Of a DNA stretch of 52,539 bases, positions 38,772 to 50,801 are shown in pieces. Position 1 is the first letter of the stretch. Every line of letters begins with the position of its first letter. The stretch is from Salinivirgaceae bacterium (GTDB lineage: Bacteria > Bacteroidota > Bacteroidia > Bacteroidales > SZUA-534). Location: positions 1 through 52,539 of the forward strand of contig JAEINW010000013.1 of NCBI GenBank assembly GCA_016342715.1, written 5' to 3'. The notes beneath the pieces are model-generated. The model was not told where the DNA came from and did not search any database. It saw only the letters and a program-made list of their open reading frames with translations. A program made the translations under genes and the position numbers.

Positions 38772-39020
38772 ATGAATACAAAACTAACATTGACTATAGA
38801 GCAAGCTTTGATTGAGAAAGCTAAAGAATACGCTAAAGGGAAAGGGCGAAGCTTATCTGACATAGTAGAAAATTATTTCAAAGCCATAGTAAAGGAAGAT
38901 GAAACTGTAAAGTCTGAGTCAACGCCAATTGCCGATTCATTACGAGGTTCATTTAAAGCTCCAAAAGATTTTGATTATAAAAAAGAATTGACCAAAGCTC
39001 TAACGGAAAAATATTTGTAA
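38772..39020 (+). CDS. Antitoxin of a VapBC-type pair (DUF6364-like)
   Basis: 82 residues. The N-terminal part (KLTLTIEQALIEKAKEYAKG, then RSLSDIVENYFKAI) is a strand followed by two helices, as in ribbon-helix-helix DNA-binding antitoxins. The C-terminal third (DSLRGSFKAPKDFDYKKELT) is charged and would wrap around the toxin. It is followed one base after its stop by the PIN-domain gene. It should neutralise that nuclease and repress the shared promoter (family knowledge). Confidence 0.82.
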   Translation: MNTKLTLTIEQALIEKAKEYAKGKGRSLSDIVENYFKAIVKEDETVKSESTPIADSLRGSFKAPKDFDYKKELTKALTEKYL

Positions 39021-39021
39021 A

Positions 39022-39447
39022 ATGGATAGAGTTTTAATTGATTCAGACGTAATATTGGATTTATTTTTTGATAGAAAACCATTTGTAGAATATTCTTCAT
39101 TAATTCTTTCACTTTGTGAATCAGGAAAAATAAAAGGATTCTTAACACCATTGATTTATAGTAACGTTTATTATTTATTACGACAGACTGCAAAACATGA
39201 TAAAGTAATAGAAAAGTTAAAACAGTTATTAAAAATAACAGATGTTCTTCAAATGGATAGAATGGTTGTGGAAAATGCGTTAAACTCTGGATTTAAAGAC
39301 TTTGAAGACAGTTTGCAAAATTCATCTGCAGTCAATAATGGAAATATTGATTTAATTCTTACTCGAAATCTGAAAGATTATAAAAATAGTGAATTGGGAG
39401 TTTTTTGCCCTGAAACCTATATCAAATCAAGAAATGCCAGGCGTTAA
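39022..39447 (+). CDS. PIN-domain toxin, VapC type
   Basis: A 141-residue PIN ribonuclease. The N-terminal acidic site is LIDSDVILDLFF (Asp8, with Asp10 and Asp14 nearby), and the second acidic cluster is DFEDSLQN followed by IDLILTRNLKDYK, a pattern of PIN toxins in Bacteroidota. Such toxins cleave tRNA or rRNA when free of antitoxin. The start ATG is fixed by the one-base gap to the antitoxin stop. The pair sits next to decayed mobile DNA, consistent with acquisition by transfer. Confidence 0.85.
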   Translation: MDRVLIDSDVILDLFFDRKPFVEYSSLILSLCESGKIKGFLTPLIYSNVYYLLRQTAKHDKVIEKLKQLLKITDVLQMDRMVVENALNSGFKDFEDSLQNSSAVNNGNIDLILTRNLKDYKNSELGVFCPETYIKSRNARR

Positions 39448-39735: not shown

Positions 39736-40887
39736 TTATGTTATTATGCTACGCTTAATATTTTCTGGTAATCGGGCTAATATTTCATAATTCATTGAAT
39801 TATTCATTTCGGCAAACGACGAAAATGTAATTTCATTTTCCCCTTGTTTCCCTATTAATATTACAGGATCACCTATTTTTATCTTTTGAATATGTGTAAC
39901 GTCGCAAATAATCATATTCATATTAACGCTACCAATTACCGGGGCTTTTTGATCCTTAATCAGAAGATGTCCTGTATTGCTTAACGAACGACTGTATCCA
40001 TTACAATAACCTACCGGAATAATAGCAATTTGCATTTTATGCTGTGCCTGATAGCTCATTCCGTATCCTATAAATTCACCTGAAGGAATAATCTTAGTTA
40101 TTATTATTTCTGAAGTCCACCGTAAAGCTCTTTTAATAGGATCGGATTTATCTTTTCGCCTGTGAATATATTGAATAAAAGTTTCGCGGGTTGGCCAATA
40201 GCCATAAATTAATATCCCAATTCGAACCATGTCTAAGCGCATTTCAGGATAATTTATTGTTGCTGCTGAACTTGCTACATGTTTTAACTCACCGGTAATA
40301 TTATTATTTTCTAATAATTTTAAACGCTTTTTATATACTGCAAACTGCTTACGTATGCGCATATGATTTGCAATACTTTCAGCTCCAGCCAAATGAGTTG
40401 TAATACCTTTTATTTCAAGACATTCTATATTTTCAAGAATTATGGGTATGGCTCTTCTAAGTTGCGATATGCTTAATCCGGTTCTATTCATACCTGTTTC
40501 TAAATCGATATGAATCTGAGCTTTTTTATTTACGTTTTTTGATGATTCAATAGCTAATTTTAAATCTTCTAAAGATGAAATGTAAAATTCAACTTTATTT
40601 TTAACCACCCAGTCATAATCATTCTTGCTAATATAGCCCATGATCATTATATCTGAATCTTTGATTCTTTCATAATAAGCTACTTTTGCTTCGGCCGATG
40701 AATATACCGAGAAATGGGTTACACCTAAATTTTCAAGTATGGGAATAACGGTGTGTGTGCCATGCCCATAGGCATTTCCTTTAATTACTACAGATAATTT
40801 TGTGTTTGAACCAATTAATGATGTAATAAACGAAAAGTTGTTTTCTAATGCCGATATTTTAATTTCAATTTTTGAAGTACTACCCAT
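39736..40887 (-). CDS. alr: Alanine racemase-like PLP enzyme
   Basis: A 383-residue fold-type III racemase. The PLP lysine is Lys36 in VVIKGNAYGHG (most alanine racemases have VKANAYGHG). The second catalytic residue, a tyrosine, is probably Tyr275 in EFIGYGMSY. GMNRTGL, RLDMVRIGILIYGY and the C-terminal SVNMNMIICDVT fit alanine racemases. It is the last gene of a tight minus-strand operon containing a second racemase of another subfamily, so it may be a dedicated racemase of the pathway rather than the cell-wall enzyme. Substrate alanine is assumed, not shown. Confidence 0.85.
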   Translation of the reverse strand: MGSTSKIEIKISALENNFSFITSLIGSNTKLSVVIKGNAYGHGTHTVIPILENLGVTHFSVYSSAEAKVAYYERIKDSDIMIMGYISKNDYDWVVKNKVEFYISSLEDLKLAIESSKNVNKKAQIHIDLETGMNRTGLSISQLRRAIPIILENIECLEIKGITTHLAGAESIANHMRIRKQFAVYKKRLKLLENNNITGELKHVASSAATINYPEMRLDMVRIGILIYGYWPTRETFIQYIHRRKDKSDPIKRALRWTSEIIITKIIPSGEFIGYGMSYQAQHKMQIAIIPVGYCNGYSRSLSNTGHLLIKDQKAPVIGSVNMNMIICDVTHIQKIKIGDPVILIGKQGENEITFSSFAEMNNSMNYEILARLPENIKRSIIT

Positions 40888-40891
40888 TTTA

Positions 40892-41569
40892 TTAAATATT
40901 AAATAATAATGCAGGATTTGGGCAAAGGGCTAAATACTTATTTAGTTCCTTTTTACTACAAACACCTGGAAAATCGCCAAAATTATTTTCCATTTCTGAA
41001 ATTATTTGGAAATGTAAATGTGGTGGCCAATTCCCATTCTCATAATGAGTTCCAATTTGTGCAAATGGATTTCCCATGGGTATAATATCACCAATTTGAA
41101 TTTGTTTTAATGAATCAGTAGCTAAATGTCCGTATAATGTATAGAATCGAATACCTTCAAGTTTGTGTTCTAAAATAATAGTTGGTCCATAATCTCCAAA
41201 ATTGTTATTTATTTTAAAACTGTGTACAATTCCATTCAACGGTGCATGAACTATCGTGTTTTCATCGCACCAAACATCAATTCCTAAGTGTATTGATCTT
41301 ACATTTTCACCTAAACCAAAATGTGTACTTTTCTTATAAATTATTCGGTCTTCGGCATATCCACCAATAGCAATTTTAGTTTGAGTTTCTATTAATTTTT
41401 TATGAATGTAATTAGCTAAGTTCTCTGTATCAAGTATGGTGTAAGTATCTAATTCTTTATTGTTTGCACTTAAATCTAAAGAGTGTATTTCATTATGCGA
41501 AACATTCAATTTCATTATCGAGGTAAAATGATCTTGGTTTCTTCTAAGAACTTTTTCTAATTCATTCAT
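40892..41569 (-). CDS. Cytosolic M23-like (LytM fold) protein
   Basis: 225 residues without a signal peptide or membrane helix. The metal site of M23 peptidases is complete: HLGID (His94, Asp98), ILEH (His135), YTLYGHL (His148) and PPHLHFQ (His184, His186). The blocks DYGPTIILEH, NGNWPPHLHFQII, FGDFPGVC and CPNPALL closely resemble the M23-like middle domain of large bacterial phosphotransferase-M23-class III aminotransferase fusions. Here that domain stands alone as its own gene. M23 enzymes normally cut peptidoglycan peptides outside the cell; a cytosolic form with two racemases suggests a small D-amino-acid or amine-containing substrate (inference). It overlaps the upstream racemase gene by one base. 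Confidence 0.75.
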   Translation of the reverse strand: MNELEKVLRRNQDHFTSIMKLNVSHNEIHSLDLSANNKELDTYTILDTENLANYIHKKLIETQTKIAIGGYAEDRIIYKKSTHFGLGENVRSIHLGIDVWCDENTIVHAPLNGIVHSFKINNNFGDYGPTIILEHKLEGIRFYTLYGHLATDSLKQIQIGDIIPMGNPFAQIGTHYENGNWPPHLHFQIISEMENNFGDFPGVCSKKELNKYLALCPNPALLFNI

Positions 41570-42669
41570 TACTTTAAAAATTCTTTTTCAATAAACTTTG
41601 AATTTAACAATCGGGCTACTGATATATAATTTGGATCCATACAAATTTTATCACCAATTTTATACTTCTTTTTACCCTTTTCGTCTATATTATCACCAAT
41701 ATCTACTACGGTCATATCAGAAGTTATTCCAACAAATTTAATGGTTTCATCATCTAAAGTCAACCCTTCCTGATCAACATCGAGTAAGCCAAAATCAAGA
41801 ATTGCTTTATAGGTTGTTTTTCCTATATCAGAATCATTATAATCAGCTGAATGGCCTATACTTGCATCGTTTATAACGCCATCAGGAACAATGCCTTTTT
41901 CTTCAAGTTCAATAATTTGAGCATAAAAATTAAAGGTATCGGTATATAAATCTAAAAATTGTGCATTATCTAAAGGACTCACTCCAAAGAAGGCAGCTTC
42001 TCCAATTCTAAAGTGATTAATATCTTTAGGAACAATATTATTTGCAATAAGTGGCAATGTAATGGAACTACCCCCTGAAATGAGTTCTAATTTGGTTCCA
42101 TGTTTTGCTTCAATAAGTTCTTTATATAAATTTAATTGAAGTAGTTTATCGTACGTGGGTTCTACTCCATACATACATCCTAAATTACTACCAAGGCCTA
42201 CTACTTCAATATTCGATAATTCAAACACTGTTTTGTAAAAGTCAAATAAATCTTCCCGATTCACTCCTTCTCTGAGCTCCCCTAGCTCAACCATAATTAT
42301 TATTTTATGAATTTTGTTTTGCTTTTTTGCCTCTTTATCAAGTTTAACAATGGTTTTATACGAGGAGTTTAGTGAAATATCGGCATAGCGAACTATATCT
42401 TCTAAATATGCTTGCGCCGGAGGTTTAATGTATATAGTTATTAATTCAGGATTTAATTCCTTAAGCTTTTTTAAGCTCGAAAGTCTTGAATCACCTACCG
42501 AATGAATGTCTTTTACAATATCAGGAGTTAATATTTGTTCCATAAATTCTCTGTCGCCTGAGAATACTTTTGTAATAAGGCTCCATTGTATGTTATTTGC
42601 TTTTAAATAAGTGCTTAACTTTTTAATATTATTTCGTATTTCAGAAATATTTATTTGCAATTCAGCCAT
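41569..42669 (-). CDS. Ornithine/alanine racemase-family PLP enzyme
   Basis: 366 residues, fold-type III PLP barrel of the subfamily containing clostridial ornithine racemase and YhfX. Marks are the PLP lysine Lys34 in LITKVFSG, DSRLSSLKKLK, YADISLNSS, IIMVELGELREGV, GLGSNLGC, LISGGSSITLP, HFRIGEAAFFG, and the C-terminal ISVARLLNSKFIEKEF. These differ clearly from classical alanine racemase. Family members racemise ornithine, lysine or alanine, and this sequence does not tell which. It lies 18 bases after the GNAT gene and overlaps the M23-like gene, so it is part of one transcript. Confidence 0.82.
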   Translation of the reverse strand: MAELQINISEIRNNIKKLSTYLKANNIQWSLITKVFSGDREFMEQILTPDIVKDIHSVGDSRLSSLKKLKELNPELITIYIKPPAQAYLEDIVRYADISLNSSYKTIVKLDKEAKKQNKIHKIIIMVELGELREGVNREDLFDFYKTVFELSNIEVVGLGSNLGCMYGVEPTYDKLLQLNLYKELIEAKHGTKLELISGGSSITLPLIANNIVPKDINHFRIGEAAFFGVSPLDNAQFLDLYTDTFNFYAQIIELEEKGIVPDGVINDASIGHSADYNDSDIGKTTYKAILDFGLLDVDQEGLTLDDETIKFVGITSDMTVVDIGDNIDEKGKKKYKIGDKICMDPNYISVARLLNSKFIEKEFLK

Positions 42670-42687
42670 AATTATTAGTTTCGTTAT

Positions 42688-43131
42688 CTACTTTTTTTTA
42701 TATCTCATTTCAGCGTATTTTGATTCAAAACCCATGCGCTCATAAAGTCTTTTTGCTGGATTATCATATTCCACGTGAAGTTTAATATCACCATCGCATT
42801 GTTTATATACTTCTTCAATTATTTGTTTTCCGAAACCTTTTCCACGATGCGTTGCATCAACAGCTACATAAACTAAAATCCAGTCTGGAATATATCCACT
42901 CATACCTGTTTTATTCATGATTAAGGCACCAACTAATTTTTCTTCGTAAAATGCAGCCAGAGCAAAGCCTCCCTCCGATTTTTCATTTGAAAAAGCATAA
43001 TTCAAACACTTGTTTATATCTTCTTTCGGATCGCCAAACTGATCTAAATGGGTGAATAAAAAGTCGATAAAGTCTTCTCTTGATATACTTTTAAAATCGT
43101 CGTTTTTGTTAATTCTTTGAATTTGTAACAT
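42688..43131 (-). CDS. GNAT-family N-acetyltransferase
   Basis: 147 residues with a clear GNAT fold: LVGALIMNKTG, then the acetyl-CoA motif YVAVDATHRGKGFGKQIIEE (about residues 88-107) and the C-terminal DNPAKRLYERMGFESK. In the operon it sits between an M20 amidohydrolase and a racemase, so it probably acetylates an amino acid or amine made by that pathway (inference). Spacing is 26 bases to the upstream and 18 to the downstream gene. Confidence 0.85.
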   Translation of the reverse strand: MLQIQRINKNDDFKSISREDFIDFLFTHLDQFGDPKEDINKCLNYAFSNEKSEGGFALAAFYEEKLVGALIMNKTGMSGYIPDWILVYVAVDATHRGKGFGKQIIEEVYKQCDGDIKLHVEYDNPAKRLYERMGFESKYAEMRYKKK

Positions 43132-43157
43132 AATTAGTTATTTTAAATTTAATTTAT

Positions 43158-44285
43158 TTAATAATTTATTTGGTGAATAATTTTGTTGAAAATGTTAACT
43201 CCAGTTTCAATAAGTTCATCGGGAAAATTATAATTTGGGTTGTGTAATGCAGGTTGCTTCACTCCTGCTCCAAGTCCAAAAAAACCGCCTTTGTATTTCT
43301 GAGTAAAATATCCAAAATCCTCCGACCAATTAAAAGGCTGGCTAAGCTCTTCCATAATATAATTATTTTGAGCAACAGAGTTATAAATGAAGTTAATACA
43401 CTCCGGATGGTTTACAGTTGCTGGAAATATTTCACAATACGAAATATCTATTTTTAGGCCTTCATTGCTTACTATTTTGCCGATTGTTTTTTCAACTATT
43501 TGGCTTAGCGTTTCCAAGTCTTCATTGTTGAAGGCTCTTAAGGTAATTCGTATTTCGGCATAACCCGGTGATGTGCCAAAGGCAATTTCACCCAACTGAA
43601 TATTTACAATAGTTAATAGAATTTTATCGTTAAAAAAATGCCCAAGTTTTTCTTTTATTATTTGAATCTCTTTTATAAATGCTCCAATAGCATTTGTTGG
43701 ACTTATCCCTTTTTCAGGTTCACCTGCATGCGAAGTTTTACCGAATAATTTAATTGTCATGCCTTTTGATGCGGCTGCGAATGAATTTTCTTTATAAACA
43801 ATTTTATGTAATTCAATTCCAGGAATATTATGTAATCCGAATATATAATCAGGTTCAATTTTACTGAATTTGCGATCTTCAAGTATAGCCTTTGCTCCTT
43901 CTCCTGTTTCTTCAGCCGGTTGAAAAAGCAAAACAATTTTTCCTTTTTTCGGCATATTTTCTGATATTTTTTTTGCCAAACCAATAAGAATAGCACTATG
44001 TCCGTCGTGCCCACATAAATGAGCAACTCCTTTTGAAGTCGATTTGTAGTCTATAGTATTTTCTTCTTGAATGGGCAAAGCGTCCATATCAGCTCGTATC
44101 ATAGTAGTTTTTCCAGGTAAATTGCTAGTAAAAACAAAGGCTAGCCCTGTATCGGCCAATTGAATAGTTTCCGATGGTGAATATTTTGAAATTAATTCTC
44201 TAATAAATTTAGATGTATTTATTTCATTACCAGATAATTCTGGCATTGAGTGTAGTTTTTGTCGATATGCAATTAAATCATTCAT
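43158..44285 (-). CDS. M20-family amidohydrolase (N-acyl amino acid hydrolase type)
   Basis: A 375-residue metallo-amidohydrolase of the IAA-amino acid/hippurate hydrolase group. RQKLHSMPELSG opens the catalytic domain; metal ligands lie in HLCGHDGHSA, PAEETGEGA, FGLHNIPG and PALHNPNYNFPDE; and the lid domain begins at GMTIKLFGKTSHAGEP. These enzymes release an amino acid from an acyl or aryl conjugate in the cytosol. Its start overlaps the end of the symporter gene (ATGA), so import and hydrolysis are probably coupled. Confidence 0.88.
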   Translation of the reverse strand: MNDLIAYRQKLHSMPELSGNEINTSKFIRELISKYSPSETIQLADTGLAFVFTSNLPGKTTMIRADMDALPIQEENTIDYKSTSKGVAHLCGHDGHSAILIGLAKKISENMPKKGKIVLLFQPAEETGEGAKAILEDRKFSKIEPDYIFGLHNIPGIELHKIVYKENSFAAASKGMTIKLFGKTSHAGEPEKGISPTNAIGAFIKEIQIIKEKLGHFFNDKILLTIVNIQLGEIAFGTSPGYAEIRITLRAFNNEDLETLSQIVEKTIGKIVSNEGLKIDISYCEIFPATVNHPECINFIYNSVAQNNYIMEELSQPFNWSEDFGYFTQKYKGGFFGLGAGVKQPALHNPNYNFPDELIETGVNIFNKIIHQINY

Positions 44286-45715
44286 TTTTTCTGATTTGCA
44301 ATAAAAGATACAAAAAAATAAACGAATGCTGAAGTTAATATTCCGTAAATATTTGCATCTAACATAAAAGGTAAATCAATTTTTAACATCGATAGAATTA
44401 TTGTTGTACTTCCTCCAAAAAGCATAGAAAATATAGCCGCTGTGGCATTTGGTTTTTTCCCATACAATGCAGCTATTATTGGCACAAATAAACCTGAGAC
44501 CATAAAAGCATATGAATAAAGCATTAATTCCAAAACATTTGTCATGTATGAGGCTAACACTAAAGCCAAAATACCAATGAGTAAGGTAACAATTTGTGAT
44601 GTTTTTAATTGGGACTTTGTACCTTTTTTAAATATAAATAACTTGTTTAATATATCCGTTTGAACATTACCCGATGCTGCCATTAAGCAGCTATCGGCAG
44701 TTGAAAGTATAGCCGAAAAATATGCTGATAACATCAACCCCATTAATCCAATGGGCAATACAGTATTTAATAAAATAGGAAGTCCCATTTCAGCATCCAT
44801 ATTTGAGCTTGTTGTATAACCCATTTCTGCAAAAAGTCCATTTTCTAAAGCAACTCTAGACAATAAACCAAGAAAAACACCCATAAATGCCATAATCGGC
44901 CATTCAAATATACCAGCTATAAACCATGCTTTTTTAGCTTGTTTTTCACTTTTTGATGCATAAATTCGCTGATAGAGTGTCATCCCAACAAACCAAATGG
45001 GTATTATAGTAACTGCCCAATTAACTAATTGTTGCCATGTTACGTTTGTGAATGATAAAAACTCGCTACCTAAGGTTGATTTTATTACCGAAAATCCACC
45101 TACGGCAAAATATGCTATTGGAATTCCGATAAAAATTAATCCAGACATTAAAATAATCCACTGAATGGTATCTGTATAAATTACAGCTTTAAGTCCACCA
45201 ATTCCGGTATAAACTACTGCAATAACACCCATAATAATAAGTGCCATTTGTAAATTTATTTCAGGAAAAGTAGCCGAAGCTAACTTTGCACCAGCTAACA
45301 GTTGTGAACTAGTAAAACCAATGTATCCAATGGCTGAAATAATACCTGCAATAAAGGCAACTTTTTTGTTGTAATAGTGTTCAAATACTTGTGGAAAAGT
45401 AAAGAATTTATGTTTTACCGATAGCTTGCTAATAATGGGAATTAAAAACACAGCACTTAACCAAGCTCCAATGAGTCCGGTGAAGAGCATCCACGAACCT
45501 GCAATTCCAATTAAAAACCCAAGTCCACCTAATCCAATTGAAAACCCTCCTCCAACATCGGTAGCTACAACAGAAAGTCCTATATGCCAACTACCAATTG
45601 AACGTCCGCCCACATAATAGTCATCAATATTTTTATTTTTGTTGAAAAAATAAACTCCTACTCCAAGCATTGTTAAAAAGTAGACTGCAAATATTAGAAT
45701 ATCCAGCCAATGCAT
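44282..45715 (-). CDS. Sodium:solute symporter (SSS family)
   Basis: A 477-residue inner-membrane carrier with about 13 hydrophobic helices. Family motifs are YYVGGRSIGSWHIGLSVVAT (about 33-52), the small-residue helix GGGFSIGLGGLGFLIGIAG, YTGIGGLKAVIYTDTIQW and AYFSAILSTADSCLMAASGN. It is not close to the vSGLT-like sugar carrier at 18956. The operon of amidohydrolase and racemases suggests it imports an amino-acid derivative or small peptide. Confidence 0.9.
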   Translation of the reverse strand: MHWLDILIFAVYFLTMLGVGVYFFNKNKNIDDYYVGGRSIGSWHIGLSVVATDVGGGFSIGLGGLGFLIGIAGSWMLFTGLIGAWLSAVFLIPIISKLSVKHKFFTFPQVFEHYYNKKVAFIAGIISAIGYIGFTSSQLLAGAKLASATFPEINLQMALIIMGVIAVVYTGIGGLKAVIYTDTIQWIILMSGLIFIGIPIAYFAVGGFSVIKSTLGSEFLSFTNVTWQQLVNWAVTIIPIWFVGMTLYQRIYASKSEKQAKKAWFIAGIFEWPIMAFMGVFLGLLSRVALENGLFAEMGYTTSSNMDAEMGLPILLNTVLPIGLMGLMLSAYFSAILSTADSCLMAASGNVQTDILNKLFIFKKGTKSQLKTSQIVTLLIGILALVLASYMTNVLELMLYSYAFMVSGLFVPIIAALYGKKPNATAAIFSMLFGGSTTIILSMLKIDLPFMLDANIYGILTSAFVYFFVSFIANQKK

Positions 45716-45752
45716 TACCTTACTACTGCATTTCCATTTACCATATTAACAC

Positions 45753-45935
45753 TTAGTTTTGATGTGTAATTTCCTCTTGTTCAAATTCTACACGTTTTTT
45801 ACAATTACTCCATCCTTTTTCTCCTCGATTGCAAAAAACATTCTTGTAAACCATTAAATCGAGAACAATTGATTTGTCTGAACCTAAAAATATGGGACAA
45901 TCATTTGAATATTTACATTTTGATTTAAAACTCAT
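45753..45935 (-). CDS. Small four-cysteine protein, function unknown
   Basis: 60 residues with Cys7, Cys13, Cys35 and Cys45 arranged as KCKYSNDCPIFLG and VFCNRGEKGWSNCKKRV. The even cysteine pattern and the CPIF and FCNRG segments look like a conserved small metal-binding or Fe-S-type protein. It lies 37 bases upstream of the symporter gene on the same strand and would be the first gene of that operon. No transposon or shadow gene explains the frame. Confidence 0.6.
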   Translation of the reverse strand: MSFKSKCKYSNDCPIFLGSDKSIVLDLMVYKNVFCNRGEKGWSNCKKRVEFEQEEITHQN

Positions 45936-46271: not shown

Positions 46272-48479
46272 ATGGATAGATTAATTATTGCATCGAATAG
46301 ATTACCAGTGAGTATTCAAAAATCTGATGAAAAACTTACAGTAACACCTAGTGCTGGTGGTTTGGCTACAGGTTTAAAATCTTATCATAAAAATAACAAT
46401 AGCATTTGGATTGGCTGGCCCGGCATAGATGCAGAATCGGAAGATGAAAAGAATGCTGTTAGCGAATTGCTATCAAAAGAACAATGTTTGCCCGTTTTTC
46501 TGGAAAAGGAATTGGTTGAAAACTTTTATGATGGATTTAGTAATGCCACTTTATGGCCTTTATTTCATTATTTTACTGAATATACCGAATTTAAAGAAAG
46601 ATATTGGTTGGCCTACAATAAAGTAAATGAACTGTTTGCTCAAACTATTATTGAAAATGCACAAGAGGGTGATACGGTTTGGGTACACGATTACCAATTA
46701 TTGCTTCTTCCAAATTTATTAAAAGCACAACGTCCTGACTTGAATATTGGATTCTTTTTACACATACCTTTCCCCTCGTATGAGGTTTTTAGAATTCTTC
46801 CTTGGCGCGAAGAAATATTGAAAGGATTATTAGGAGCCGATTTAATTGGGTTTCATACCTACGATTATGCCCGGCATTTTATAAGTTCAGTTAAACGTTT
46901 ACTTGGCTACGATGTTGATTTCAATACCATTGCTCTAGAGAATAGACAAGTATTTATCGATGTTTTTCCGATGGGTATTGATTACGAAAAATTTGAAAGC
47001 AAAGCACTTGAAGTGCAGAGCAAACCTATTCAGGAACGATCAAAAATGCATCAGGATATTGACCGATTTTTAATGGGAATGCCCGATAGAAAACTGATTC
47101 TGTCGATCGATCGCTTAGATTATACCAAAGGTATTCCTGAACGGATAAAAGCATTCAAACATTTTTTAACAAAACACCCTGAGTATAAGGAGAAAGTTTC
47201 CTTGCTAATGCTTACGGTACCTTCAAGAGTTGATGTGGAACAATATCAAAACTTGCGTAGCGAAGTTGAAGAATTGGTGGGAAGTGTAAATGGAAAATTT
47301 GGATCGCTTAACTGGAATCCAATCATCTACTTCTACCGCTCCTTACCTTTCGAAAATTTAATAGAATTGTATAGTTCATCAGACATTGCCTTACTAACTC
47401 CCCTGCGCGATGGAATGAATTTGGTTGCTAAGGAATATTTAGCATCAAAAACAAATCATAAGGGAGTACTCATTTTAAGCGAAATGGCTGGCGCAACAAA
47501 AGAATTAGGCGAAGCAATATCAGTTAATCCTAATAATATTCAGGATGTTTCTGATGCAATTTACAAAGCTTTAACAATGTCGGTTGAAGAGCAATCGAAA
47601 GGTGTTACTACCATGCAAAAGCGAATAAAAAGATATGATGTGCATAAATGGGCATCGGAATTTACAAATGCCTTAACAAATTCGCAAAAGAAAATTGCTG
47701 AACATCAGGCGCGCAAAGTTTCAGCAAAACATTTAGAACAAATTAAAAACGACTTTATAAAAGCTAAGCAAAAAGTTCTTTTCTTAGATTATGATGGTAC
47801 GCTTCAACGCTTTTATGGAAACCCTGAAGATGCCAAACCAGATAAAGAAATATATGATTTAATAGATGCATTGTCGTTGAACAAAAGTACAGAACTGGTA
47901 ATTATTAGTGGAAGAGACAAAAACACACTGCATAAATGGTTCGATGGAAAACAGGTTACGCTTATTGCTGAACATGGTGCCTGGATTAAGCACGTAAATA
48001 AAGATTGGAAAGGAAGAAATAAAAATCAAGTAAAATGGAAAGACAACATTCGACCCATTCTAGAATCGTATGTGGACAGAACTCCGGGAAGTTTAATTGA
48101 AGAAAAGACATATTCCTTAGTTTGGCATTACCGTAAAGCCGATATTGAATTGGGAATTTTGCGAGCTTTAGAGCTTAAAACCGATGTATCAAACTTTTTA
48201 CTGAACCAAGAACTTGAAATATTAGAAGGCAGTAAGGTAATTGAAGTTAAGGAAACTGGAATTAATAAAGGAACTGCTGCAAGCGAATATATTAAAGATA
48301 CCGACTACGATTTCATTATGGCTATAGGTGACGATTGGACCGATGAATATTTATTTAGGGAATTGCCTGAAACTGCATTCACAATTAAAGTGGGTACAAA
48401 TAAATCAGATGCAAAGTATTATGTAGACAACTATTTAGAAGTACGATCGTTATTGAAAAAGTTAATTAATACTAAGTAA
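46272..48479 (+). CDS. Bifunctional trehalose-6-phosphate synthase/phosphatase
   Basis: 735 residues. The first about 480 are a GT20 synthase (IASNRLPVSI, SAGGLATGLK, WVHDYQLLLLP, FFLHIPFPS, LLTPLRDGMNLVAKEY), which joins UDP-glucose to glucose-6-phosphate. From about residue 500 follows a HAD-type phosphatase with VLFLDYDGTLQRF (nucleophile Asp near 507), VIISGRD, AEHGAWIK and the magnesium-binding GDDWTDEYLF. Both activities look intact, so this one protein makes trehalose. It is four bases upstream of the GH15 gene, an arrangement common in this phylum. Trehalose would protect against osmotic or desiccation stress. Confidence 0.94.
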   Translation: MDRLIIASNRLPVSIQKSDEKLTVTPSAGGLATGLKSYHKNNNSIWIGWPGIDAESEDEKNAVSELLSKEQCLPVFLEKELVENFYDGFSNATLWPLFHYFTEYTEFKERYWLAYNKVNELFAQTIIENAQEGDTVWVHDYQLLLLPNLLKAQRPDLNIGFFLHIPFPSYEVFRILPWREEILKGLLGADLIGFHTYDYARHFISSVKRLLGYDVDFNTIALENRQVFIDVFPMGIDYEKFESKALEVQSKPIQERSKMHQDIDRFLMGMPDRKLILSIDRLDYTKGIPERIKAFKHFLTKHPEYKEKVSLLMLTVPSRVDVEQYQNLRSEVEELVGSVNGKFGSLNWNPIIYFYRSLPFENLIELYSSSDIALLTPLRDGMNLVAKEYLASKTNHKGVLILSEMAGATKELGEAISVNPNNIQDVSDAIYKALTMSVEEQSKGVTTMQKRIKRYDVHKWASEFTNALTNSQKKIAEHQARKVSAKHLEQIKNDFIKAKQKVLFLDYDGTLQRFYGNPEDAKPDKEIYDLIDALSLNKSTELVIISGRDKNTLHKWFDGKQVTLIAEHGAWIKHVNKDWKGRNKNQVKWKDNIRPILESYVDRTPGSLIEEKTYSLVWHYRKADIELGILRALELKTDVSNFLLNQELEILEGSKVIEVKETGINKGTAASEYIKDTDYDFIMAIGDDWTDEYLFRELPETAFTIKVGTNKSDAKYYVDNYLEVRSLLKKLINTK

Positions 48480-48483
48480 ATTT

Positions 48484-50292
48484 ATGGATAACTTAAATTA
48501 TGGCATTATTGGTAATTGCCGTAGCGCAGCATTAATATCAGAACAAGGAAGTATTGATTGGTGCTGTTTGCCTGATTTCAATTCTTCCTCGGTTTTTGCC
48601 AACATTCTTGATACTAAAATTGGCGGAAAATTTGAAATTATTGTTGATACTGACTATAAAATTAATCAAGAGTATATAAAAGACACAAACATTCTTAAGA
48701 CACGATTTTCAGACGGGAATAACATTTTTGAAATTTTAGATTTTATGCCTCGATTCAAGTCTGAATCAAAAGATTATTATAATCCACCAGATGTTATTCG
48801 GTTTTTTAAGCATATTAATGGCAAGCCTACTTTTAAAATAAATTACAAACCAAAGTTAGAATTTGCCAGATTCGAAACCCTCACAAAAGAACACAGGGAT
48901 TACATAAAAAGTAGCACAATTGAAGGCACTTACGATTCATTATATTTATACACCGATTTTGAAAAAGAAAAAATAATAAATAGTGAATTAATTGAGTTAA
49001 GCCAAAATGCTTTTGTTTTAATTAGTTATAATCAAAAACTTCTGGAGCAAAATATTGAAAGACAAAATCTTAAACTACAAAAAACTAAAGTTTATTGGCT
49101 GAATTGGGCTAGCGAAACCTACATAGGGAGTGATTTTAAAAATGAAATAATGCGCAGTGCACTCACTCTTAAAATGTTAAGCTACGATAAAACTGGAGCC
49201 GTATTAGCTGCCATTACTACCTCCATACCTGAAACCATTGGCGAAGTCAGAAACTGGGACTATCGCTTTTGTTGGATTCGCGATGCATCAATGGTAATAA
49301 AAGTAATGACTGAATTGGGACATGGAAGAAGTGTTCGCCGGTTTATGAATTTTATTCTTGATATAATTCCCGATAAGGATGAAAAGATTCAGATTATGTA
49401 TGGAATTAATAAAGAGAAAACCTTAACTGAAGAAACTCTATCACACTTGAGTGGATACGAAAATTCAGCACCGGTAAGGGTTGGTAATGCTGCATATATT
49501 CAAAAACAAAACGATATTTACGGAATTCTGGTAGATGTAATTTATCAGCAATTTAAACGCTTTGACACTTCGCTTGAAAATAGTGAATCACTTTGGACAA
49601 TTACTCGCAGTATTGTGCGAATTGTAGAAGAAAATTGGCAAAAACCAGATAAAGGAATATGGGAAATACGTACCGAAGAAAAACATTTCACCTTTTCAAA
49701 AGTACTCTGTTGGGTTGCTATTGATAGAGCTATTAAAATAGCTAAAATAATACGAATGAAAGATTATATTGCCCCTTGGGAAAATCTTGCTAAAAGCATT
49801 GAAAAAGACATTTACGATAATGCTTGGAATGAAAAAGTTGGTGCATTTACTCAATTTTACGGATCTGCTGATTTAGACGCCTCAAATTTACTAATGGAGT
49901 CCTACGGTTTTATTGATGCCTCAAATGAAAAGTATATTAAAACAGTCAAAGCAACTCAAAAAGAACTTTGCCAAGACGGCCTCATGTACAGGTATAAAAA
50001 CAAAGATGATTTTGGATTGCCAAGTTCTTCATTTACCATATGTTCTTTTTGGCTAATTAACAGCTTGAATGCCATTGGCGAAAATGATGTAGCAACTCAA
50101 TTATTTAAAAAAATATTGTCGTATAGCAATCATTTAGGGCTGTTTAGCGAAGATATTGATTTTAAAACCAAACGCTTGCTAGGAAACTTTCCTCAAGCAT
50201 ATAGTCATTTAGCACTTATTGAAACAGCAATAAATTTATCGAAAAGAAAAACGAGCAAGGATGAGAAAATTCTACAGGCAATAAAACACTAG
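48484..50292 (+). CDS. Glycoside hydrolase family 15 protein (trehalase or glucoamylase-like)
   Basis: 602 residues, cytosolic. The N-terminal beta domain begins YGIIGNCRSAALISEQGSID, typical of GH15, and the alpha/alpha-barrel holds TIGEVRNWDYRFCWIRDASM (about 250-269, with a conserved Glu) and the later CWVAIDRAIKIAK and FSEDIDFKTKRLLGNFPQAY. Bacterial GH15 enzymes are glucoamylases, glucodextranases or, as in mycobacteria, trehalases. Partnering with a trehalose synthase makes a trehalase role attractive (inference). Its stop overlaps the convergent MarR gene by four bases. Confidence 0.88.
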   Translation: MDNLNYGIIGNCRSAALISEQGSIDWCCLPDFNSSSVFANILDTKIGGKFEIIVDTDYKINQEYIKDTNILKTRFSDGNNIFEILDFMPRFKSESKDYYNPPDVIRFFKHINGKPTFKINYKPKLEFARFETLTKEHRDYIKSSTIEGTYDSLYLYTDFEKEKIINSELIELSQNAFVLISYNQKLLEQNIERQNLKLQKTKVYWLNWASETYIGSDFKNEIMRSALTLKMLSYDKTGAVLAAITTSIPETIGEVRNWDYRFCWIRDASMVIKVMTELGHGRSVRRFMNFILDIIPDKDEKIQIMYGINKEKTLTEETLSHLSGYENSAPVRVGNAAYIQKQNDIYGILVDVIYQQFKRFDTSLENSESLWTITRSIVRIVEENWQKPDKGIWEIRTEEKHFTFSKVLCWVAIDRAIKIAKIIRMKDYIAPWENLAKSIEKDIYDNAWNEKVGAFTQFYGSADLDASNLLMESYGFIDASNEKYIKTVKATQKELCQDGLMYRYKNKDDFGLPSSSFTICSFWLINSLNAIGENDVATQLFKKILSYSNHLGLFSEDIDFKTKRLLGNFPQAYSHLALIETAINLSKRKTSKDEKILQAIKH

Positions 50293-50801
50293 TGTTGCTT
50301 TTTGTGAGCCTTATCATTTGTTATATTATCTTCAATGTTGTCTTCAATGGTAAGCAATGGAGAGGCATCAACATTCTGAATATTAAGTAGTTTGATTAGT
50401 ATTTCCAATCCTTCTTCAATTTGAGATACTTTGCCAGGATTAAGTTTATTTAACTTTTCTATTAATTGTTCATGTAACAACGAAGGTATTTCGTTTAAAA
50501 GTTTGTCACCTGCTGATGTCAATGCAATATTTACAACACGTTTGTCGCCTGATTTTGGCAAGCGAGCCAAATGACCTTTTTTTTCTAAACGATTAATAAT
50601 ACCACTAATTGTACTGGAATTTAAATTGAGGAATTTCTTAATTTCTCCCTGAGTAGCTTGATAATTAGGAGATGTATGCAGAAAATTTAAACAAAGTATT
50701 TGGGGAATACTAACTCCATATTCTTTTTGAATTTTCTTTGATTCTAAATTAATAGAGCGAACTATTTTTCTAATTTTTATTAATATGTCGGTTGTTTCCA
50801 T
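50289..50801 (-). CDS. MarR-family transcriptional regulator
   Basis: 170 residues with a winged helix: YGVSIPQILCLNFLHTSP, the recognition helix region SSTISGIINRLEKKGHLAR, and the wing KSGDKRVVNIALTSAG. The last 30 residues are an acidic, unstructured extension. It is convergent with the trehalose genes and the overlap is four bases. The same pairing of MarR regulators with osmoprotectant genes is known elsewhere, so osmotic control is possible (inference). A palindrome upstream may be its own operator. Confidence 0.9.
   Translation of the reverse strand: METTDILIKIRKIVRSINLESKKIQKEYGVSIPQILCLNFLHTSPNYQATQGEIKKFLNLNSSTISGIINRLEKKGHLARLPKSGDKRVVNIALTSAGDKLLNEIPSLLHEQLIEKLNKLNPGKVSQIEEGLEILIKLLNIQNVDASPLLTIEDNIEDNITNDKAHKKQH

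What the first reader, a model, noticed from the sequence alone, without database searches (positions are those of the whole stretch)
39736..45935. Seven-gene operon pairing two racemase families with a cytosolic M23-like protein, amidohydrolase, acetyltransferase and symporter
The genes overlap or lie within 37 bases of each other: Cys-rich protein, SSS symporter, M20 amidohydrolase, GNAT, ornithine/alanine racemase, M23-like, alanine racemase. I know of no described pathway with this content. A likely logic is import of an N-acylated or D-amino-acid-containing compound, deacylation, racemisation and re-acetylation, with the M23-like protein acting on an intermediate. This is the strongest candidate for an undescribed system in the window.
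Basis: inference. Interest (0 to 1): 0.78.

Follow-up and report, generated by a model that had tools for sequence, protein, structure and literature searches.

The report
Conserved amino-acid racemase–acetyltransferase gene cluster
Six neighbouring genes form a conserved but apparently undescribed bacterial gene set, built around an acetyltransferase and a racemase-like enzyme, that probably makes, takes up and breaks down an N-acetylated mirror-image (D-) amino acid.

Summary
Six of seven genes (SSS symporter, M20, GNAT, Orr-like, M23, Alr) form one tight minus-strand array; the seventh, a 60-aa Cys-rich ORF, has no homologue in 245 loci and I leave it out. Clustering is conserved: of 296 genomes of the phylum, 42 have the Orr-like protein and 42 the GNAT, 41 both, 40 of these within 2.5 kb. 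The Alr paralogue occurs in 32, all with both, though 12 lie more than 5 kb away or on another contig; in a second sample 10 of 10 agree. GNAT–ORR is the firm core. M20 and ALR are a looser second pair (within 5 kb in 24 of 31 genomes). M23 is optional and goes with either; it keeps its zinc ligands, lacks a signal peptide and is kin to the middle domain of an APH–M23–aminotransferase fusion. Best explanation: the core inverts and N-acetylates an amino acid, M20–ALR deacylate and re-racemise it, the symporter imports it. Substrate and direction are unproven; the Orr-like protein is below the ornithine-racemase cut-off. No description was found in nine paper searches. New variant of a known kind; interest 0.56.

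The parts
44282..45715 (-). SSS-family Na+/solute symporter, 477 aa
   Evidence: PF00474 158 bits; PutP TIGR02121 161.6 bits, below its cut-off of 515.5; an SSS gene within 5 kb on the same strand in 39 of 84 well-flanked ORR loci, divergent ones included
43158..44285 (-). M20-family amidohydrolase, 375 aa (second pair with ALR)
   Evidence: TIGR01891 221.5 bits, cut-off 153.75; H-x-CGHDGH invariant in 13 rows; closest solved structure by profile YxeP 1ysj
42688..43131 (-). GNAT acetyltransferase, 147 aa (core)
   Evidence: PF00583; family found in 42 of 296 genomes, 41 of them with ORR
41569..42669 (-). Orr-like fold-type-III PLP enzyme, 366 aa (core)
   Evidence: PF01168; NF040742 272.6 bits, below cut-off 480; Lys34 invariant in 19 rows; AF2 model pLDDT 90.3 matches alanine, lysine and serine racemases, TM about 0.7
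40892..41569 (-). Cytosolic M23-type zinc peptidase-like protein, 225 aa (optional member)
   Evidence: PF01551 49.3 bits; NF004799/PRK06148 positions 351-573; H94, D98, H148, H184, H186 invariant in 17 rows; no N-terminal hydrophobic stretch; LytM/lysostaphin fold Z 12.9, 132 residues, 2.5 A
39736..40887 (-). Alr paralogue, 383 aa (second pair with M20)
   Evidence: TIGR00492 271 bits, cut-off 168; one other PF00842 gene in the genome, in a 774-aa frame on C16; NMN in 11 of 11 rows where three solved Alrs have CMD or TMD, Tyr of NY[EQ] kept in 11 of 11
45753..45935 (-). 60-aa Cys-rich ORF upstream of the symporter; not a recurrent member
   Evidence: no family; no homologue in 245 loci
50289..50801 (-). 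MarR-family regulator; relatives are the next gene upstream of the cluster in L103 and L136 (possible regulator)
   Evidence: PF01047; same protein cluster c26

Best explanation
This is a conserved amino-acid system of two coupled enzyme pairs. The core pair, ORR and GNAT, inverts the alpha carbon of an amino acid (Orr-like PLP enzyme) and caps its amine with acetyl-CoA (GNAT), giving an N-acetyl-D-amino acid; an SSS symporter, often beside them, takes up the amino acid or its N-acyl form. The second pair, M20 and ALR, undoes this: M20 (with M23 where present, on a peptide-linked form) hydrolyses the N-acyl or peptide bond in the cytosol, and the dedicated Alr paralogue returns the freed small D-amino acid to the L pool. 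Shown: the clustering, the phyletic dependence, family membership, conserved zinc and PLP-lysine residues, and lack of a signal peptide on M23. Inferred: that ORR is a racemase, that the GNAT acts on the alpha-amine, the substrate, what M23 cuts, and the direction.
For: GNAT and ORR co-occur in 41 of 296 genomes with one exception each way and are linked in 40 of 41. GNAT stands immediately upstream of ORR in 95 of 123 distinct loci, median gap 3 bp. ALR: 32 of 296, all with ORR and GNAT, and 31 of 32 with M20; 12 of the 32 are not within 5 kb of ORR; ALR and M20 are within 5 kb in 24 of 31. Second sample: ALR in 10 of 60 genomes, all 10 among the 15 with ORR (nine are new genomes, G000 is in both samples). 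SSS–GNAT–ORR and M23–M20–ALR are separate loci in G273 (L097, L234); M20–ALR is apart in G224 (L231). ALR keeps the Tyr tied to small substrates in 11 of 11 rows (meaning of that Tyr from passages of PMC3485190). GNAT-then-deacetylase N-acetyl capping has a tested precedent in B. subtilis (PMC12757645, abstract and start of the introduction).
Against: Running both pairs together would be a futile cycle unless they are regulated apart. A reversible ORR makes a second racemase redundant, so ORR and ALR may have different substrates. ORR scores below the Orr cut-off (272.6, 288.1 and 316.5 against 480). No Tyr column conserved in 80% or more of rows lies between residues 183 and 335, where a weak profile comparison (4.3% probability) places the Alr catalytic-Tyr region. 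Foldseek also matches aldolases (6qkb, 4v15). The division into pairs is not clean: M23 goes with M20–ALR or ALR in G273, G070 and G227, but stays with SSS–GNAT–ORR in G235, G266 and G022; M20 is by ORR while ALR is elsewhere in G104 and G112. M20 relatives occur in 18 genomes without ORR. The GNAT and ALR profiles were built from ORR-linked rows (one ALR row, L062, was by M23), which favours finding such members. There is no substrate evidence. Fisher values ignore phylogeny.
Confidence: 0.35

Rival explanations
1. Scavenging pathway, close to the first reader's: the symporter imports D-amino-acid-containing dipeptides or N-acyl amino acids, M23 and M20 hydrolyse them, the two racemases convert two different released amino acids to L forms, and GNAT protects or detoxifies one product.
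For: A symporter gene is near ORR in 39 of 84 well-flanked loci. ALR keeps a small-substrate Tyr while ORR is of another subfamily, which suggests two substrates. M23 and M20 are hydrolases and often adjoin ORR. Bacteria using D-amino acids by racemases in reverse is reported (PMC3960212, abstract).
Against: 35 of 84 well-flanked loci have no SSS, M20, ALR or M23 gene within 5 kb on the same strand of GNAT–ORR, and 9 of the 41 ORR+GNAT genomes lack ALR altogether at the threshold used, so the core persists without the hydrolytic part. ALR depends on ORR and GNAT, not the reverse.
Confidence: 0.25
2. The GNAT acetylates the side-chain amine of a dibasic amino acid (ornithine, lysine or diaminobutyrate type) and the Orr-like enzyme inverts the alpha carbon of that product, or the reverse order; the product is a solute or a building block.
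For: The Orr-like protein's best family is ornithine racemase. In three Winogradskyella records the pair stands beside a 2223-2246-aa protein, which in L165 carries AMP-binding, PP-binding and ketosynthase domains.
Against: All three Orr-like proteins tested are under the Orr cut-off. ALR keeps the Tyr tied to small substrates, so M20–ALR would fit a dibasic substrate poorly.
Confidence: 0.15
3. Detoxification only: the core N-acetylates D-amino acids released by cell-wall turnover, and ORR is an auxiliary racemase.
For: 35 of 84 well-flanked loci hold the core without the other four genes within 5 kb.
Against: A detoxifier would not need a dedicated Alr that occurs only where it occurs; ORR is as conserved as the GNAT.
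Confidence: 0.1

Closest known systems
B. subtilis scm (formerly yxe) S-(2-succino)cysteine pathway: acetyltransferase ScmL, deacetylase ScmP
   Same: An acetyltransferase and a metal-dependent deacetylase in one cluster use N-acetylation as a temporary cap (PMC12757645, abstract and start of introduction); YxeP, which I take to be ScmP, is the closest solved structure of this M20
   Different: That pathway has a monooxygenase between the two steps; that it has no racemase, M23 or SSS gene is my recollection, not a test
Ornithine racemase Orr (NF040742)
   Same: Best family hit, over the full length, of the Orr-like enzyme
   Different: 272.6, 288.1 and 316.5 bits against the cut-off of 480; no D-ornithine aminomutase genes were identified near it, though most neighbours were not scanned
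PRK06148 fusion (APH kinase–M23–class-III aminotransferase)
   Same: The M23 protein is kin to its middle part (positions 351-573); L081 shows the three domains
   Different: Here M23 stands alone; kinase and aminotransferase domains are absent from the cluster's proteins
Ectoine-degradation deacetylase DoeB2 (NF038260)
   Same: M20 scores 212.8 bits to it
   Different: Cut-off 550 not reached; no other ectoine-degradation family was hit by the cluster's proteins
Alanine racemase (TIGR00492), including the bifunctional MurF–Alr
   Same: Above the TIGR00492 cut-off; full-length profile match to solved Alrs
   Different: A second PF00842 gene besides one in a 774-aa frame, the size of MurF–Alr but not scanned for MurF; NMN in place of the CMD or TMD of the solved Alrs shown

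Membership tests
Ornithine racemase Orr (NF040742) | Score above the curated cut-off (480 bits) | tested here: not met
   272.6 (window), 288.1 (L082), 316.5 (L075)
Fold-type-III PLP racemases | PF01168 barrel with PLP lysine and racemase fold | tested here: met
   PF01168 47.8 bits, cut-off 24.1; Lys34 invariant in 19 rows; Foldseek E 8.3e-19 to Alr 5yyc
Fold-type-III PLP racemases | Second catalytic base (Tyr265 of Alr) in the Orr-like protein | tested here: inconclusive
   No conserved Tyr column in residues 183-335 of 19 rows; the mapping is weak
Alanine racemase (TIGR00492) | Score above cut-off; PLP-Lys and Y-G motifs | tested here: met
   271.3 against 168; VxKGNxYGH-type and GYG motifs in 11 of 11 rows; that the Tyr of GYG is the catalytic one is recalled
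Alanine racemase (TIGR00492) | Acts on alanine | not testable with these tools
   Only the retained Tyr of NY[EQ] points to a small substrate
Peptidase M23 | HxxxD and HxH zinc motifs, LytM fold | tested here: met
   H94, D98, H184, H186 invariant in 17 rows; Z 12.9, 132 aligned, 2.5 A
Peptidase M23 | Export to the envelope, as in known peptidoglycan hydrolases | tested here: not met
   Highest 19-residue hydropathy in the first 40 residues is 0.10 for the window protein (-0.38 to 1.29 over 17 rows) against 2.31 for the symporter; a hydropathy test, not a signal-peptide predictor
PRK06148 (NF004799) | Full-length score above 1128 bits | tested here: not met
   162.5 bits over one part only
M20 amidohydrolase TIGR01891 | Score above 153.75 | tested here: met
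   221.5 bits
DoeB2 (NF038260) | Score above 550 | tested here: not met
   212.8 bits
Na+/proline symporter PutP (TIGR02121) | Score above 515.5 | tested here: not met
   161.6 bits; general SSS PF00474 met, TIGR00813 159.2 against 184 not met
Scm/yxe-type N-acetylation pathway | GNAT product is cleaved by the M20 partner | not testable with these tools
   needs enzyme assays

The most novel reading that the evidence does not exclude
An undescribed N-acetyl-D-amino acid is a regular cytosolic metabolite (solute, store or building block) of many Bacteroidota, Ignavibacteria and Cloacimonadota, made by the GNAT–Orr-like pair, taken up by the SSS symporter and dismantled by M20–Alr with M23. Weak hints of a compatible-solute role: sucrose-phosphate synthase and sucrose synthase genes inside the cluster of L101/L162 (one contig held twice), and trehalose-phosphate synthase next door in the window, a neighbour not seen in the stretch held of L105.
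Probability: 0.2. Interest if true: 0.75.

Novelty: new variant of a known kind. Interest (0 to 1): 0.56.

Why it matters
It would add a route for D- and N-acetyl-amino acids to bacteria in which its substrate and role are unknown, explain a dedicated alanine-racemase paralogue, and give a metabolic context to a cytosolic M23 family whose other members stand alone or inside kinase–aminotransferase fusions. The gene dependence (ALR found only where GNAT and ORR are) makes a specific and cheap biochemical test possible.

Tried and rejected
Seven-gene count: the Cys-rich ORF was dropped. A clean two-operon division, which I first favoured, was softened: G273 shows it, but M23 stays with SSS–GNAT–ORR in G235, G266 and G022, and M20 stays by ORR without ALR in G104 and G112. 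M23 as the defining member: rejected. It is near ORR in 17 of 84 well-flanked loci and lies elsewhere in many genomes; in the M23 tree of 56 rows the linked label needs 6 changes (at least 4 forced by supported branches). In that tree two long proteins (L081, 1011 aa, and L072, 422 aa) were cut crudely from residue 301 on, so their places are unsure. Ectoine or proline assignment: below the cut-offs. Promoter scan: at shuffle level. M20 alone is not specific: 51 of 296 genomes, 18 of them without ORR.

Literature (open-licence PMC library only): ornithine racemase with M23, with acetyltransferase and symporter, and hydroxylysine with M23 gave 0 papers. The 12 papers holding 'ornithine racemase' were seen as a listing; one, PMC12838360, as passages: it lists an ornithine racemase in a Flavobacteriales strain without the neighbours found here, and its authors suggest that D-amino acids may play a part in osmoregulation. 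One search listed 8 papers, one, 8 of 9, 6, and 12 of 487, none of which by title and start of abstract describes this cluster; the 475 unlisted ones I did not see. PMC12363236 holds none of five terms looked for.

One search used the window, L062-L181 and L196-L215 and dropped repeats by identical C-terminal 150 residues; L226-L245 were not in it. Larger neighbourhoods were fetched for 40 of the 42 ORR genomes (not G142, G156). Some record names may be wrong for MAGs (for example the Ectothiorhodospiraceae and archaeal ones). The thresholds (GNAT E 1e-20; ALR and M20 E 1e-90) were mine; the weakest listed hits are 1.9e-53, 1.4e-115 and 6.4e-122. In those searches only some first-look candidates per genome were scored (for GNAT at most 13). 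The GNAT–ORR distance correlation has no species-tree control.
Full report
OBSERVATION. Families by Pfam and NCBIfam: SSS symporter; M20 amidohydrolase (TIGR01891 221.5 bits, cut-off 153.75); GNAT; Orr-like PLP enzyme (NF040742 272.6 bits, cut-off 480); M23 (PF01551); Alr (TIGR00492 271.3 bits, cut-off 168). The 60-aa Cys-rich ORF matches no family, and a tblastn against 245 loci found nothing better than E 0.37; I exclude it.

CONSERVATION. In a draw of 296 genomes of the phylum, the Orr-like protein is in 42 and the GNAT in 42. 41 are shared; G156 has only a 33%-identical Orr relative and G076 only the GNAT. In 40 of the 41 the two genes lie within 2.5 kb; in the exception, G119, the Orr gene is cut by a contig end. 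Among 123 distinct Orr loci, GNAT is the gene immediately upstream in 95, median gap 3 bp, 72 of 95 at most 10 bp. Among 84 loci with at least 5 kb on both sides, same-strand neighbours within 5 kb are GNAT 82, SSS 39, M20 33, ALR 33 and M23 17. The commonest sets are GNAT alone (35), all five (12), all but M23 (12) and GNAT+SSS (10). GNAT and Orr distances correlate over 93 pairs (Mantel r 0.567, 0 of 999 permutations as high), which shared descent alone could give. Named records with GNAT next to or near ORR include Salinivirgaceae and other Bacteroidales, Flavobacteriales (Tenacibaculum, Winogradskyella, Crocinitomix), Melioribacteraceae/Ignavibacteria and Cloacimonadota.

DEPENDENCE. The Alr paralogue is in 32 of 296 genomes; all 32 have both ORR and GNAT, and 31 have M20. 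In 12 of the 32 the ALR gene is not within 5 kb of ORR: nine on other contigs, three farther on the same contig (8 kb, 12 kb and 1.7 Mb), so linkage alone does not explain it. Nine of the 41 ORR+GNAT genomes lack ALR. In a second sample of 60 relatives the Alr is in 10, all among the 15 with ORR. The own genome has one other PF00842 gene, in a 774-aa open frame of MurF–Alr size that I did not scan for MurF. M20 is less specific: 51 of 296 genomes, 33 with ORR. M23: 87 of 296 at E 1e-8, fusions included, 29 with ORR, of which 17 lie within 1.5 kb of ORR. The GNAT and ALR profiles were built from rows found by ORR (one ALR row by M23), a bias towards such members; no listed GNAT hit lies between the 1e-20 threshold and 1.9e-53.

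ARCHITECTURE. G273 has SSS–GNAT–ORR (L097) and M23–M20–ALR (L234) as separate loci. G224 has GNAT–ORR beside a divergent SSS (L084) and M20–ALR elsewhere (L231). G070 has GNAT–ORR beside a divergent SSS (L063) and M23–ALR elsewhere (L062). G227 has M23, M20–ALR and SSS–GNAT–ORR side by side (L099). But the division is not clean: M23 stays with SSS–GNAT–ORR in G235 (L073), G266 (L098) and G022 (L213), and in G104 and G112 M20 lies by ORR while ALR is elsewhere. ALR and M20 are within 5 kb in 24 of 31 genomes, ORR and ALR in 20 of 32. G076 keeps only the GNAT at what by gene lengths is the place where G111 and G194 have SSS–GNAT–ORR. In the M23 tree of 56 rows the linked ones need 6 changes (at least 4), so M23 was joined to or lost from the cluster several times.

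PROTEINS. M23: AF2 model pLDDT 92.1, LytM/lysostaphin fold (Z 12.9, 132 residues, 2.5 A), zinc-site and catalytic-type histidines and aspartate invariant in 17 rows, no N-terminal hydrophobic stretch. Its best NCBIfam match is the middle of PRK06148; L081 shows the full APH–M23–aminotransferase protein. The own genome has eight other M23 hits to this family's profile, at most 50.6 bits against 312.8. ORR: AF2 pLDDT 90.3, matches alanine, serine and lysine racemases and also fold-type-III aldolases; Lys34 invariant; no conserved Tyr column in residues 183-335. ALR: NMN in 11 of 11 rows where the three solved Alrs shown have CMD or TMD. The Tyr of NY[EQ] is kept in 11 of 11; I take it as the equivalent of Tyr354 of Geobacillus Alr from the alignment and recall. 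Passages of PMC3485190 tie that position to small-substrate specificity (Thr in lysine racemase, Ala in Bar, Asn in VanT). A PDB title (8b8h) names D322N of M. tuberculosis Alr as D-cycloserine resistant; that this is the second N of NMN is a recall-based mapping, not a test.

MECHANISM. The best reading is synthesis (ORR, GNAT) and undoing (M20, ALR) of an N-acetyl-D-amino acid, with symport and an optional cytosolic M23. The asymmetry (ALR not found without ORR and GNAT; ORR and GNAT found without ALR in 9 of 41) fits ALR acting downstream of the core. The precedent for an acetyl cap later removed is the scm/yxe pathway (PMC12757645, abstract and start of introduction). Problems: futile cycling, two racemases, unknown substrate, and an ORR chemistry that is only inferred. 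An osmolyte role is a weak extra guess: sucrose genes inside the L101/L162 cluster and a trehalose synthase beside the window cluster, the latter not seen in the stretch held of L105; the authors of PMC12838360 suggest an osmoregulatory role for D-amino acids in general (passage).

REGULATION. A MarR gene at 50289-50801 shares a family with MarR genes that are the next gene upstream of the cluster in L103 and L136. In the window it is about 4.4 kb from the first gene, with the trehalose genes between.

VERDICT. Real, conserved and apparently undescribed in the papers I could search (open-licence PMC papers only). Made of known enzyme families, hence a new variant of a known kind.

Noticed in passing
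window 38772-39447 (+): DUF6364 gene followed by a PIN_3-domain gene: a likely type II toxin–antitoxin pair downstream of the operon (families; the reading as a toxin–antitoxin pair is mine).
   Followed up: no
window 46272-50292 (+): Bifunctional trehalose-6-phosphate synthase/phosphatase (NF011071, above cut-off) followed by a trehalase-like protein (NF041084 399.7 bits, below its cut-off of 820), divergent from the operon.
   Followed up: partly
L228:5792-10290, L235:6294-10704, L236:5500-10447: Second copies of the Alr paralogue in G104, G227 and G211 follow a 404-408-aa protein (ATP-grasp in the two scanned, L228 and L236) and a 589-659-aa protein without Pfam match: a possible separate D-amino-acid ligase cluster.
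   Followed up: partly
L165, L173, L174 (Winogradskyella): GNAT–ORR stands next to a 2223-2246-aa protein; in L165 it carries AMP-binding, PP-binding, ketosynthase, acyltransferase and class-III aminotransferase domains.
   Followed up: partly
L234:7793-8737 (-): BhcB/threo-3-hydroxyaspartate ammonia-lyase-like PLP enzyme divergent from M23–M20–ALR (433.7 and 364 bits, both below cut-off).
   Followed up: no
L072:7005-8273 (+): M23 family member with a DUF559 endonuclease-like domain in the same protein.
   Followed up: no
L108:124-7069 (+): Two GNATs and two ORRs interleaved in one cluster with SSS, M20 and ALR, suggesting two substrates.
   Followed up: partly
L111, L117, L133, L135: RpoD-like sigma factor and ribosomal-protein-S21-like genes (named by eye from their sequences) sit between GNAT and the symporter in these Flavobacteriia-type records.
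   Followed up: no
G000:C32:14774-15892 (+): The own genome has a second close relative of the cluster's M20 (503.5 bits to the A4 profile) on another contig.
   Followed up: no
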